The notes below the pieces were generated by a model. The model was not told the origin of the DNA, did not search any database, and saw only the letters and a list, made by a program, of their open reading frames with translations. Made by a program: the position numbers and the translations under genes. A stretch of DNA of 64,000 bases. Source: an uncultured Bacteroidales bacterium (lineage in GTDB: Bacteria; Bacteroidota; Bacteroidia; Bacteroidales; Paludibacteraceae). Shown here piece by piece: positions 43,883-47,623 of this stretch (its first letter is position 1; each line of letters begins with the position of its first letter). The stretch spans positions 1-64,000 of the forward strand of contig ONHW01000004.1 of assembly GCA_900317745.1 (NCBI GenBank). The letters run 5' to 3'.

Positions 43883-44908
43883 ATGACCCCTTTGGATAAA
43901 CAGGCATTTTTCCTCTTATACGACACTCCTGACAATAATGCCAAGGTACAGGTCGTTGTGCGAGATGAAACCATCTGGATGACCCAGAAAGCGATGGCTG
44001 CGTTGTTTGATGTCAATGTGCCAGCGATAAGCAAGCATCTCAAGAATATCTTTGAGAGCGGAGAACTGGATGAGAATGTGGTTGTTTCCAAAATGGAAAT
44101 AGCCACTCAACATGGTGCAATTGCAGGGAAAATGCAGAATATAGAGACAAATTTCTACAACCTCGATGCAATCATTTCTGTCGGTTATCGGGTTAATTCC
44201 GCACGTGCAACGCGTTTCCGTCAATGGGCTACCAAGATCCTCAATGAATATATCCGCAAGGGCTTTGTGTTGGACGATGACCGGCTCAAGCAGGGAAAGG
44301 CGGTGTTCGGTAAGGATTATTTTCGCGAACTCTTGGAGCGCGTACGTTCCATTCGTGCCAGCGAACGCCGTATATGGCAGCAGATTACGGATATCTATGC
44401 CGAGTGCAGTATTGATTACGACCGCAACGCTCCTACTACCCGTGACTTTTATTCCATGGTTCAGAATCGCTTTCACTACGCTATCACAGGGCACACGGCT
44501 GCAGAGATTATTTACACGCGTGCCGACCATGCTCAGCCGAATATGGGACTGCATACCTGGCGTAATGCGCCCGACGGACGCATACTCAAGTCGGACGTGA
44601 CGGTTGCCAAGAACTATCTTGATGAGAAGCAGATTCGCCAATTGGAGCGCGCTGTAACCGGCTACTTCGATTATATTGAGGATCTGATCGAGCGCGAGAA
44701 CACGTTCAATATGCAGCAGTTTGCGTCCAGTGTGAATGAGTTCCTTTCTTTCCGCCGCTACAACATATTGCCTGACAAAGGCCGCATCTCCAAATCACAA
44801 GCCGACGAAAAGGCCGAAGCGGAATATGACATCTTCAATCGCACCCAACCGATAACCTCTGATTTTGACAAAGAAATCAAGCGCATGATAGAGCAAAATC
44901 AGGGATAA
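43883..44908 (+). CDS. RhuM-family protein
   Basis: 341 residues of the RhuM family (named from a Salmonella pathogenicity island; biochemical role unknown). Seen: VRDETIWMTQKAMAALFDVNVPAISKHL, a helix-turn-helix-like N-terminus, YNLDAIISVGYRVNS, RATRFRQWATKIL (a Bro-N/RhuM core near 95-125), and a C-terminal helical domain with HAQPNMGLHTW. Such genes commonly travel with restriction systems or mobile DNA. It is followed by a GIY-YIG protein gene and lies after the cell-wall genes. Confidence 0.85.
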   Translation: MTPLDKQAFFLLYDTPDNNAKVQVVVRDETIWMTQKAMAALFDVNVPAISKHLKNIFESGELDENVVVSKMEIATQHGAIAGKMQNIETNFYNLDAIISVGYRVNSARATRFRQWATKILNEYIRKGFVLDDDRLKQGKAVFGKDYFRELLERVRSIRASERRIWQQITDIYAECSIDYDRNAPTTRDFYSMVQNRFHYAITGHTAAEIIYTRADHAQPNMGLHTWRNAPDGRILKSDVTVAKNYLDEKQIRQLERAVTGYFDYIEDLIERENTFNMQQFASSVNEFLSFRRYNILPDKGRISKSQADEKAEAEYDIFNRTQPITSDFDKEIKRMIEQNQG

Positions 44909-44951
44909 AAAGCTGTGATTTCAAAATCACTGGATAATAATACATATGTAA

Positions 44952-45431
44952 ATGAAAGTACCCAAATACATACGAACATTTATGGGTGATGAATTTCGCG
45001 CTGTTGAAGGAGTGAATGCTCATTTTATCCTGACTAAATTTTCAGAACCGGATTTCCGACCTGTAGAAAATGTAGTCGGATGTTATGTGATTTCCGCTAT
45101 CGAAAAGAATATCGAGTATCCGAAGGGCAAGAGCCCTATCTTGTATATCGGGCTTTCCAAACATTTGTTGACAAGATTAAAACATGATCATTACCGTGAC
45201 AACCTAAAGAAATTGCTGGATAATCCGGAATATGGTTTGCGAGGCAGTCTAATTAGCATGATGCAGGATAAGTATCAATATATGTACTATTTAGGGGCAA
45301 AAGTGGATGTATTCTATTGTAAAGGAACACAGAGCGCTAAAGAGTTTGAAAGTCGCCTTATCGCCAATTTTTACTATAAATATCGCAGTATGCCTGTAGG
45401 CAATGGCGCACGATCTTTTAGCCAAAGATAG
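44952..45431 (+). CDS. GIY-YIG nuclease-like protein
   Basis: 159 residues. The GIY part is VVGCYVISAIE (about 36-46), the YIG part ILYIGLSKHLLTRLKHDH (about 63-80) with the conserved Arg, and a Glu (ESRLIANFYYKY) near 138 fits the metal ligand. Other domains are not present. It could be a small homing or defence endonuclease. It lies 43 bases after the RhuM-like gene. The lower G+C compared with murA fits acquisition, but I did not compute it across the region. Confidence 0.65.
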   Translation: MKVPKYIRTFMGDEFRAVEGVNAHFILTKFSEPDFRPVENVVGCYVISAIEKNIEYPKGKSPILYIGLSKHLLTRLKHDHYRDNLKKLLDNPEYGLRGSLISMMQDKYQYMYYLGAKVDVFYCKGTQSAKEFESRLIANFYYKYRSMPVGNGARSFSQR

Positions 45432-45529: not shown

Positions 45530-45561
45530 TTTGCTTAATTCATTTATTTTTTGTATCTTTG
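45530..45561 (+). promoter_or_regulatory. Promoter of the HTH / nucleotidyltransferase unit
   Basis: TTTG, 20 bases, TATCTTTG, about 60 bases before the ATG at 45622. Confidence 0.78.
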
Positions 45562-45621
45562 CAGCAGTTATAAATTTTTGCATTTCGCGAATTGCGAAAA
45601 AAATTCTTTAAATTGTTGTGT

Positions 45622-46146
45622 ATGATAGTACTAAAGCCACAAGATTTTCTTGTGTTGTTGAAAAAAATAACATCACAAGGAAAGAGCCTGACCGCATATA
45701 AATTGGCGGAAGAAATTGGAATAAGTGCGTCAAGCGTGGGTGAAAGTCTTGAACGCTGCAAGGCGGCGCAGTTAGTGGATCGCAGCAAGAAGCGTGTTAA
45801 TACACTTGCATTGCAAGAGTTTCTGGTCCATGGTATTCAGTACGTGTTTCCCGCTGAGGCGGGGCGAGTAGGTAGAGGCGTGGCAACTTATGTCAGCGCA
45901 TCGCCGATTCAAGAGCAACTGGCTGGCAACGCGGAGAGTTATGTGTGGCACTATCTGAAAGGAAATGCCCGTGGTCAACAGATAGAGCCGCTCTATCCAT
46001 CTGTGCCCGAAGCTGCACTGCGAGACCCTGAACTATACCAACTATTGGTCATCGTTGATACTCTCCGCATGGGCAGAGCACGTGAAAGAGAAATTGCTAT
46101 TCAGGAGTTAGCAGTAAGAATTAACCGCTATGTCGAAAACGAATAA
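45622..46146 (+). CDS. Helix-turn-helix DNA-binding protein, putative antitoxin
   Basis: 174 residues. The N-terminal 60 residues form a winged-helix/HTH segment (SLTAYKLAEEIGISASSVGESLERCKAAQ), followed by a wing-like KKRVNTLALQEFLVHG and a C-terminal domain of unknown fold (YVFPAEAGRVGRGVATYVSA). The TTG at 45592 would add ten basic residues; the ATG at 45622 is preferred. It ends 17 bases inside the next gene, a nucleotidyltransferase-phosphoesterase fusion. That overlap and the promoter suggest a two-gene operon of toxin-antitoxin type, with this protein as the repressor. The family is not recognised with confidence. Confidence 0.7.
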   Translation: MIVLKPQDFLVLLKKITSQGKSLTAYKLAEEIGISASSVGESLERCKAAQLVDRSKKRVNTLALQEFLVHGIQYVFPAEAGRVGRGVATYVSASPIQEQLAGNAESYVWHYLKGNARGQQIEPLYPSVPEAALRDPELYQLLVIVDTLRMGRAREREIAIQELAVRINRYVENE

Positions 46147-47623
46147 CGAGCGCCTGCAAGAGATTGCTGAGGCGATGCAGGAACTGAACGCGCGCATCGT
46201 GTACGTGGGCGGAGCGATGGCAGGTGGATACGCAACTGATCCGATAGCAACAGCACCTCGCACAACAACAGATGTAGATTGCGTGGTTGATTCGCACTCT
46301 TACAGCGAGCATGCTGCATTTGAAGAACTGCTGAGAGCCAAACATTTTCAAAACGACATAGATTCCGAGCCACCTGTTATCTGCCGCTGGGTATATAACG
46401 GCGAGAAGGTTGATGTGATGTCAATGAACGAGCAGAGCCTAACGTTTGGCAACAGGTGGTATCGCATCGGTTTTGAGCATCGCGAGTCCTTCGCTTTGCC
46501 ATCCGGGCAACTCATCTACCGTTTGCCTGTCACATATTACATCGCAACGAAGATTGAGGCGTTACGTTCGCGCGGCGGCGGTGATTGGCGAGGAGCGAAA
46601 GATTTCGAAGATATCATATATGTGCTTAACTATTGCACCGAGTTTGTTGACAGATTCAATGCAGAAGATGAGCAGGTTAAATCCTTTGTAGCAGAGCAGT
46701 TTGCCGATATGCTGCAACGCCCGAATATCACAGAAGAGATTGAATGCGCTATTGCACCCGATGAAGTTGAGCGTACAGACTTGATTCTTGATATACTAAA
46801 AACATGTGTGCAGTATAAGCCACAATCTTTGCGCATCCAATTTGTCAGCGACTTGCACCTGGAGTTTCCCGAGAACAGGGCTTGGCTTGCAGCGCATCCG
46901 CTTGAGGTCACAGGCGATATACTACTCATTGCCGGGGATACGGCGTATCTGGATTTGCCGGAGTCGGGTAAAGATAGCTATTCGATGTTCGATTTCTGGG
47001 ATTGGACATCGCGTAACTATCGGCAAGTGATTGTTTGCTTTGGCAACCATGATTTCTATGGCTACTACGACATAGCCACTATGCCGGACGGTTATTGCAA
47101 GACCATTCGTCCCAATGTGCATGCATATTACAATAATGTTGTGCACCTCGCCGATACGGATATAATTGTATCCACACTTTGGGCGCATATAGAACCATAC
47201 AACGCCTATTTGACCGAGCGCAATGTAAGTGATTTCTACCGCATCAAATACAACGGGCATAAGTTGACAGCCGATGATTTCAATGCGGAGCATGCGCGCT
47301 GCTTGGCATTCATCAAACGAGCTGTAACAGAGAGTAAAGCAAAAACAAAAATTGTCCTCACGCACCATGTGCCAACGCAATTATGCACAGCTGCTGAGTT
47401 CGTGGGAAGTACAATTAACGGTGCATTTACGGTTGAACTGGGCGAATATATCGCTGATTCGGGCATTGACTATTGGATTTACGGGCATTCACATCGTAAT
47501 ATCAAAGCACAGATAGGTAACACACTCATTTTATCTAATCAGTTAGGATACATCTCCCATGGCGAATACCTGCACAATGGTTTCAACGCCTCCGCTGCCC
47601 TCGTGATCCCAACTGAAACATAA
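46130..47623 (+). CDS. Nucleotidyltransferase fused to metallophosphoesterase
   Basis: 497 residues in two parts. Residues 1-225: a nucleotidyltransferase of the AbiEii/MNT kind, with GGAMAGGY (27-34), acidic triad D48-D50 (TTDVDCVVD) and D95 (KVDVMS), and the downstream KIEALRSR...AKDFEDIIYVL (141-166). Residues 235-497: a calcineurin-like phosphoesterase with all metal motifs, SDLHLEF (240-246), AGD (268-270), FGNHD (304-308), THH (411-413) and YGHSHRN (451-457). One protein thus can in principle attach and remove a nucleotide. Its start overlaps the end of an HTH protein by 17 bases. The role is inferred to be defence or toxin-antitoxin. Confidence 0.8.
   Translation: MSKTNNERLQEIAEAMQELNARIVYVGGAMAGGYATDPIATAPRTTTDVDCVVDSHSYSEHAAFEELLRAKHFQNDIDSEPPVICRWVYNGEKVDVMSMNEQSLTFGNRWYRIGFEHRESFALPSGQLIYRLPVTYYIATKIEALRSRGGGDWRGAKDFEDIIYVLNYCTEFVDRFNAEDEQVKSFVAEQFADMLQRPNITEEIECAIAPDEVERTDLILDILKTCVQYKPQSLRIQFVSDLHLEFPENRAWLAAHPLEVTGDILLIAGDTAYLDLPESGKDSYSMFDFWDWTSRNYRQVIVCFGNHDFYGYYDIATMPDGYCKTIRPNVHAYYNNVVHLADTDIIVSTLWAHIEPYNAYLTERNVSDFYRIKYNGHKLTADDFNAEHARCLAFIKRAVTESKAKTKIVLTHHVPTQLCTAAEFVGSTINGAFTVELGEYIADSGIDYWIYGHSHRNIKAQIGNTLILSNQLGYISHGEYLHNGFNASAALVIPTET

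What the first reader, a model, noticed from the sequence alone, without database searches (positions are those of the whole stretch)
46130..47623. Nucleotidyltransferase fused to a metallophosphoesterase, behind an HTH repressor
Seen: an AbiEii-like nucleotidyltransferase with its acidic triad (D48, D50, D95) and a complete calcineurin-like phosphoesterase in one 497-residue chain, overlapping by 17 bases a 174-residue HTH protein with its own promoter. Known: nucleotidyltransferase toxins of AbiE and MNT type pair with HTH antitoxins. Inference: the second domain could remove the nucleotide that the first adds, giving a self-reversing toxin or a two-state defence signal. I know of no characterised system with this architecture.
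Basis: partly seen in the sequence, partly recalled or inferred. Interest (0 to 1): 0.78.

Follow-up and report, generated by a model that had tools for sequence, protein, structure and literature searches.

The report
Toxin-like enzyme fused to phosphoesterase
A rumen bacterium carries a repressor gene followed by a gene that fuses a toxin-like nucleotide-adding enzyme to a phosphate-removing enzyme, and relatives show such enzymes paired in several different ways, which points to a control step that can now be tested.

Summary
Observation confirmed: a winged-HTH gene (45622-46146) overlaps by 17 bases a 497-residue fusion of an AbiEii/DUF1814-like nucleotidyltransferase (NTase) and a complete calcineurin-like phosphoesterase (PE). 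The HTH+NTase pair is already catalogued (PADLOC candidate PDC-M21); the phosphoesterase partnership is the new part. The same PE family sits beside or fused to four NTase types, and M21 itself is found with three metallophosphoesterase lineages (PE fused, PE2 downstream, PPP-type upstream). With PE alone as query, 22 of 42 loci have such an NTase within 1.5 kb, against 0 of 29 control metallophosphoesterases; with the c3 NTase alone as query, 24 of 30 loci hold PE or PE2. Against generality: 0 of 30 canonical AbiEii loci have one, nor do M21 pairs sampled across the phylum. Relatives repeatedly lost the NTase while keeping HTH and PE; PE remained under purifying selection. Best reading: an AbiE-like toxin-antitoxin/defence operon whose phosphoesterase opposes or controls the NTase. 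Whether it erases the added nucleotide (slightly favoured) or removes a silencing phosphate like that of MenT toxins, for which a 'currently unidentified phosphatase' was postulated, is open.

The parts
45531..45561 (+). putative promoter TTG-N20-TATCTTTG (Bacteroides-type by recall)
   Evidence: pattern found in the window; the same pattern was found in 10 of the 21 upstream sequences read, window and its near-identical relative L074 included
45583..45599 (+). putative operator, inverted repeat TTTCGC-GAATT-GCGAAA between promoter and HTH start
   Evidence: TCGCGAA core present upstream of the HTH gene in 26 of 26 loci examined (0.3% of shuffled sequences; loci are related), NTase-deleted copies included
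45622..46146 (+). HTH protein, 174 aa, putative autorepressor/antitoxin
   Evidence: PADLOC PDC-M21A 1.3e-41; only sub-threshold wHTH hits in Pfam; conserved family alignment
46130..46816 (+). NTase domain of the fusion (residues 1-229), AbiEii/DUF1814-like
   Evidence: PADLOC PDC-M21B residues 4-229, 1.2e-45; motifs; hhalign to AbiEi_2-paired NTases 98.7%, 3.6e-16
46817..47623 (+). phosphoesterase (PE) domain of the fusion (residues 230-497) and stop
   Evidence: Pfam Metallophos 4.4e-15; phrog_1649 metallo-phosphoesterase 1.2e-34; metal-ligand columns invariant in 19 homologues
46289..46827 (+). stretch that is missing in the near-identical relative L074 (in-frame loss of NTase residues 54-231; HTH and PE intact)
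   Evidence: blastn and codon listing of L074 against the window

Best explanation
The locus is an AbiE-like toxin-antitoxin (probably anti-phage) operon with a third, enzymatic activity. The HTH protein represses the operon through the conserved inverted repeat and probably neutralises the NTase (inferred). The NTase domain, by relationship to AbiEii/MenT, transfers nucleotides to an RNA such as tRNA and stops growth when free (inferred). The phosphoesterase is a dedicated partner that opposes or controls the NTase; that it is a functional partner is well supported (about 0.85). The mechanism I favour slightly is that it erases the NTase's product, so the fusion is a writer and eraser in one chain, as in GlnD (recalled), and keeps accidental NTase activity harmless until a trigger tips the balance.
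For: PE occurs with four NTase types: fused to M21, beside c2-c3, after AbiEi_2+NTase in 2 loci, and with a 4-base overlap after a canonical AbiEii (PF08843, 7.2e-44) in 1 locus, L211. M21 occurs with two further metallophosphoesterase lineages: PE2 in L039, L191, L192 and PPP-type directly upstream in L041, L043, L193, L194, L277 (NTase not found in L193 and truncated in L194). PE-only query: 22 of 42 distinct family loci and 9 of 16 viral-collection loci have an NTase within 1.5 kb on the same strand; controls 0 of 29. c3-only query: 24 of 30 loci with PE (15) or PE2 (9). In 24 HTH-bearing genomes of the family the NTase is intact in 16, 14 of them with a metallophosphoesterase, and deleted or truncated in 8, of which 4 keep an intact PE. 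After a shared NTase deletion, L076/L170 PE shows 17 synonymous and 6 nonsynonymous changes, dN/dS 0.094: PE keeps a job without its NTase, as an antidote could. All 7 genomes examined that keep PE without the M21 NTase hold another AbiEii gene (background 36 of 61).
Against: No substrate is shown for either domain. M21 pairs outside Bacteroidales lack any metallophosphoesterase (8 of 8 strong phylum-sample loci), canonical AbiEii loci lack one (0 of 30), and c2-c3 pairs on Methylocella, Pseudomonas and Sphingobium plasmids lack one, so it is not essential to such toxins. 20 of 42 PE loci have no such NTase nearby (7 at contig edges). Toxin and antidote in one chain defeats classical toxin-antitoxin stoichiometry. 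I recall no PPP-type enzyme that trims RNA 3' ends. c3 loci without a metallophosphoesterase also exist (L363, L372; truncated c3 in L385).
Confidence: 0.4

Rival explanations
1. The phosphoesterase is a protein phosphatase that re-arms the toxin. The HTH protein induces phosphorylation of the Thr in the NTase motif R-x-T-x-D-x-D (T46), which silences it; the phosphoesterase removes that phosphate.
For: In MenT1 (T39) and MenT3/TglT (S78) the residue two before the first Asp of DxD is phosphorylated through the antitoxin and this inactivates the toxin (passages of PMC11375011, and PMC7205606); the latter authors postulate 'a currently unidentified phosphatase'. The pattern R-x-T-x-D-x-D is kept in 30 of 32 M21, 16 of 17 c3 and 2 of 2 AbiEi_2-paired NTases of my sets. 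PPP-type partners belong to a lineage best known for protein phosphatases (recalled). A phosphatase in the same chain as its substrate makes sense.
Against: PE is kept under purifying selection after the NTase is deleted, when it would have no cis substrate. The Thr is conserved in AbiEii-like NTases that have no phosphoesterase, and 0 of 30 canonical AbiEii loci have one. The HTH protein shares only its wHTH with AbiEi_2, so antitoxin-induced phosphorylation is not shown here.
Confidence: 0.3
2. The phosphoesterase is a second effector (nuclease or nucleotide hydrolase) that acts alongside the NTase against phage or host, not on the NTase or its product.
For: PE profile has weak PDB hits to MPPED2 (0.0028) and Mre11 (0.024); PE also occurs next to type I R-M genes without an NTase (L160, L038, genes recognised by eye); PE relatives at 22-35% identity are common in phage contigs.
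Against: A toxic effector would not be expected to survive as an orphan under purifying selection when NTase and sometimes HTH are gone (L169, L033); the preference for NTases over other neighbours is strong.
Confidence: 0.15
3. Hitch-hiking: defence islands gather genes, and one chance loss of a stop codon fused two neighbours without functional meaning.
For: The genes lie in defence-like settings (RhuM next door; HsdS-HTH-NTase-helicase order on a Mitsuaria plasmid), and PE modules move between operons (tree).
Against: Several NTase-phosphoesterase combinations, with gene overlaps of a few bases, and 24 of 30 c3 loci are hard to get by hitch-hiking; controls 0 of 29.
Confidence: 0.1
4. The NTase makes a nucleotide second messenger and the phosphoesterase degrades it (two-state defence signal, CBASS-like).
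For: Opposed synthase/phosphodiesterase pairs are known in signalling (recalled).
Against: The NTase groups with AbiEii/MenT-type NTases; no CBASS or other cyclase model among the PADLOC hits.
Confidence: 0.05

Closest known systems
PDC-M21 (PADLOC-DB phage-defence candidate)
   Same: HTH = PDC-M21A, NTase = PDC-M21B, same order and overlap
   Different: that two-gene candidate has no phosphoesterase; no paper in the library holds the term 'PDC-M21'
AbiE (AbiEi/AbiEii) and MenAT type IV toxin-antitoxin systems
   Same: HTH gene overlapping a DUF1814-type NTase gene; NTase motifs including the phospho-acceptor position
   Different: the HTH protein lacks a recognisable AbiEi C-terminal domain; a metallophosphoesterase is fused
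Metallophosphoesterases MPPED2 / Mre11 / phrog_1649 / PDC-S10
   Same: calcineurin-like fold motifs
   Different: only remote similarity; the PE subfamily's preferred neighbours are NTases
GlnD-type bifunctional uridylyltransferase/uridylyl-removing enzymes (recalled)
   Same: nucleotidyltransferase and phosphohydrolase in one chain
   Different: hydrolase is a metallophosphoesterase, not an HD domain; no tie to nitrogen control was looked for

Membership tests
AbiE-type toxin-antitoxin (AbiEi/AbiEii) | AbiEii/DUF1814 nucleotidyltransferase | tested here: met
   motifs; hhalign 98.7% to AbiEi_2-paired NTases; Pfam AbiEii hits 9 of 15 members, best 4.2e-8, but not the window's own domain at E<=1
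AbiE-type toxin-antitoxin (AbiEi/AbiEii) | AbiEi antitoxin with wHTH and AbiEi C-terminal domain | tested here: not met
   HTH family aligns with the AbiEi_2 family only over 53 wHTH columns, probability 40%; no AbiEi Pfam hit
AbiE-type toxin-antitoxin (AbiEi/AbiEii) | antitoxin gene first, overlapping the toxin gene, autoregulated | tested here: inconclusive
   order and overlap met; operator conserved in 26 of 26 loci but repression untested
AbiE-type toxin-antitoxin (AbiEi/AbiEii) | toxicity, neutralisation, phage protection | not testable with these tools
   needs experiments
PDC-M21 | PDC-M21A and PDC-M21B side by side | tested here: met
   1.3e-41 and 1.2e-45
PE family (this report) | calcineurin-like metallophosphoesterase with complete metal ligands | tested here: met
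   19 homologues
CBASS | CD-NTase and CBASS effector | tested here: not met
   no such model among the PADLOC hits of the HTH, the fusion and two upstream proteins; best NTase relations are AbiEii-like

The most novel reading that the evidence does not exclude
The phosphoesterases fused to or encoded with these NTases are the missing phosphatases of the AbiEii/MenT toxin superfamily: they remove the antitoxin-induced phosphate from the active-site Thr and so switch the toxin back on, and three metallophosphoesterase lineages were recruited separately for this.
Probability: 0.3. Interest if true: 0.85.

Novelty: new variant of a known kind. Interest (0 to 1): 0.68.

Why it matters
AbiE-type toxins are widespread, and how their modification of RNA is undone, or how a toxin silenced by phosphorylation is switched on again, is open; the authors of PMC7205606 postulate an unidentified phosphatase (passages). 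Here metallophosphoesterases of three lineages are tied to such NTases by fusion or operon, which gives a concrete enzyme and a single-chain substrate to test either idea. It would also add a third, enzymatic component to a class of toxin-antitoxin systems described with two.

Tried and rejected
Viral-collection scan with the fusion alignment found no relative; with PE it found 80 kept of 109, with the NTase 1. Phage and plasmid protein searches with the fusion found no record covering 80% of it. PADLOC, NCBIfam and PHROGs gave no name that explains the fusion; the DS9_1 anti-phage phosphoesterase model scored 14.6 bits against a cut-off of 420. PDB searches with single sequences gave nothing meaningful. 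Programmed rearrangement as the cause of the NTase deletions was considered and left open: several in-frame junctions end at the first PE codons, but at L074 the two aligned blocks share only one base. An assembly error in L074 alone cannot be excluded; the junction shared by G038 and G328 in two assemblies speaks against error there. My first scan for metallophosphoesterases around AbiEii and distant M21 loci used too narrow a pattern and was redone. My first count '42 of 76' included two NTase remnants; one search gives 40 of 76. Literature: terms 'AbiEii'+'metallophosphoesterase' gave 1 paper, a phage genome that I saw only in the listing; 'AbiEii'+'phosphoesterase' 0; 'nucleotidyltransferase toxin'+'phosphoesterase' 0; 'nucleotidyltransferase toxin'+'phosphatase' 6, of which 5 were listed and none opened; a four-term search gave 4 papers, listing only. 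These searches cover an open-access library only.

Full report
WHAT IS THERE. The window (G000 contig 16; loci with the same architecture are titled Paludibacteraceae, Bacteroidales or Bacteroidia MAGs, those with a named host mostly from ruminants) holds an HTH gene at 45622-46146 and a 497-codon gene at 46130-47623, overlapping by 17 bases. Residues 4-229 match PADLOC PDC-M21B (1.2e-45) and the HTH protein PDC-M21A (1.3e-41). Residues 235-456 are a calcineurin-like phosphoesterase (4.4e-15).

CONSERVATION. In genome contigs 38 loci encode relatives. Nineteen (L055-L073) carry the two-domain frame, each with the HTH gene ending 14-20 bases inside it; the other 19 have an NTase without PE, deletions, or broken or cut copies. 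In 101 related genomes 21 had a match to the fusion or one of its domains. In 300 genomes of the family, 24 have the HTH protein: 11 intact fusions; 4 with the NTase gone and PE intact (G038, G322, G328, G341); 1 with both truncated (G314); 1 with truncated NTase and no PE (G037); 3 with HTH, NTase and the unrelated-by-BLAST phosphoesterase PE2 (G055, G107, G186); 2 with a PPP-type phosphoesterase upstream, one without detectable NTase, one with it truncated (G269, G302); 2 with NTase alone (G259, G277). By construction this search cannot show loss of the HTH gene; one orphan PE (L169) has only a scrap of it upstream.

NATURAL DELETIONS. L074 (G322) has the same chromosomal neighbours as the window (DsbD-like and TonB-type proteins by length and position), HTH and PE 99% identical in protein, but lacks NTase residues 54-231 in frame. 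Other junctions: residue 36 to PE start (L075), residue 19 to PE start (L076 and L170), almost no NTase left (L168), residue 12 or about 20 to late PE (L080, L190), residue about 93 to mid PE out of frame (L077). L076 and L170 are sisters in the PE tree and share the junction; since then PE collected 17 synonymous and 6 nonsynonymous changes (dN/dS 0.094; a fused pair, L055/L174, gives 0.174), where about 60 nonsynonymous would be expected without selection. The c2-c3 type shows the same: L179 keeps c2 and PE with a 26-residue remnant of c3; L148 has c2 and PE and no detectable c3.

THE PHOSPHOESTERASE AS PARTNER. Stand-alone PE genes up to 78% identical to the domain lie after AbiEi_2 (PF09952, 5.6e-25) and an NTase with a few bases' overlap (L030, L034); next to a c2-c3 pair in many loci, including viral-collection contigs; and after a canonical AbiEii (PF08843, 7.2e-44) in L211. 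c2 is remotely AbiEi_2-like (94%, 1.4e-7), c3 remotely M21-like (92%, 6.1e-7). Counting only NTase domains of at least 120 residues on the same strand within 1.5 kb: 22 of 42 distinct PE loci from the PE-only family search, 9 of 16 from the 18 best viral-collection loci (of 80 held), 40 of 76 over all sets, against 0 of 29 PF00149 control loci from 13 genomes (30 fetched, one of them the window; one search listed many more matches without loci). From the c3 side: 33 matches in 300 genomes, 30 loci, 15 with PE and 9 with PE2 in the flanks; L363, L372 and the truncated L385 have none, L364, L379 and L384 are cut by contig ends. These loci are related to each other, so the counts are not independent trials. 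In the PE tree most PE branches are c2-c3; the fused clade is nested among them, with an AbiEi_2-type PE (L034) as neighbour and another (L030) inside it (support 0.96 for L030 with fused copies in the smaller tree), so the module has moved between systems.

THREE PHOSPHOESTERASE LINEAGES. PE2 shows no significant BLAST similarity to PE (best E 0.3) but is PF00149 with DxHG, GNHD and GH[FY]H. PPP-type proteins (GDIHG, GDYIDRG, GNHE; PF00149 at 1e-15 to 1e-21 in the four scanned) stand directly upstream of HTH in L041, L043, L193, L194 and L277.

LIMITS OF THE ASSOCIATION. In a phylum sample 17 of 345 genomes have a PDC-M21B match; apart from the window, 8 strong loci all have the HTH gene and none a metallophosphoesterase in the fetched flanks. 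c3 in the phylum: 4 of 340 genomes; PE in one of the four loci. Plasmid c2-c3 pairs in Methylocella, Pseudomonas and Sphingobium have none, the first being followed by an nSTAND3/Mrr-like protein. Canonical AbiEii: 0 of 30 loci. So the partnership is mainly a Bacteroidales development.

REGULATION. Between a promoter-like TTG-N20-TATCTTTG and the HTH start the window has TTTCGC-GAATT-GCGAAA; the core TCGCGAA is upstream of the HTH gene in 26 of 26 loci given to the script (the window, L074 and the NTase-deleted copies included; two fusion loci, L065 and L072, were not given), against 0.3% of shuffles.

MECHANISM. The NTase belongs with AbiEii/MenT-like enzymes. [quoted passage not shown] from passages of PMC11375011 and PMC7205606 the toxin is silenced by phosphorylation of a Ser/Thr in R-x-[ST]-x-D-x-D, and a phosphatase for reactivation was postulated. 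The window NTase has that motif with T46; the pattern holds in 30 of 32 M21 and 16 of 17 c3 sequences. Two readings follow: eraser of the product, or phosphatase of the toxin. Retention and selection of PE without its NTase, and the finding that all 7 genomes examined with PE but no M21 NTase (G322, G038, G328, G341, G327, G008, G063) hold another AbiEii gene (36 of 61 in the background sample; small numbers, and G063 also has an intact c3 locus), favour an enzyme useful against other NTases, hence the eraser, slightly. PPP-type partners and the literature favour the phosphatase. Shown: anatomy, conservation, association, deletions, selection. Inferred: toxicity, target, regulation, the phosphoesterase's substrate.

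Noticed in passing
43883-45431: A RhuM-family gene (PADLOC PDC-S05, 8.5e-159) and a small weakly GIY-YIG-like gene lie just upstream. In the near-identical relative L074 the alignment breaks from window 43999 to 45388 (about 150 bases instead of 1390), so most of RhuM and the second gene are missing there.
   Followed up: partly
L040, L160, L399: These NTase or PE genes sit inside what look like type I restriction operons: HsdM-PE-c2-c3-HsdS (L040) and HsdM-PE-HsdS (L160), both recognised by eye, and annotated methyltransferase-HsdS-HTH-NTase-helicase on a Mitsuaria plasmid (L399); a layout reminiscent of prrC (recalled).
   Followed up: no
L391:3001-6077: In Methylocella tundrae the c2-c3 pair is followed, with a 4-base overlap, by a 772-aa protein with nSTAND3 (7.6e-35) and a weak Mrr nuclease match: a different third component.
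   Followed up: no
L074:6159; L075:6001-6110; L076:6001-6060: Three different in-frame NTase deletions end within the first few codons of the PE domain; at L074 the two aligned blocks share only one base. Whether selection or mechanism explains this is not known.
   Followed up: partly
L176:3474-4831 and L177: An orphan PE gene, 68% identical to the window domain, lies 2 bases after an alpha/beta-hydrolase-like gene (UPF0227) in two genomes, a partner unrelated to NTases.
   Followed up: no
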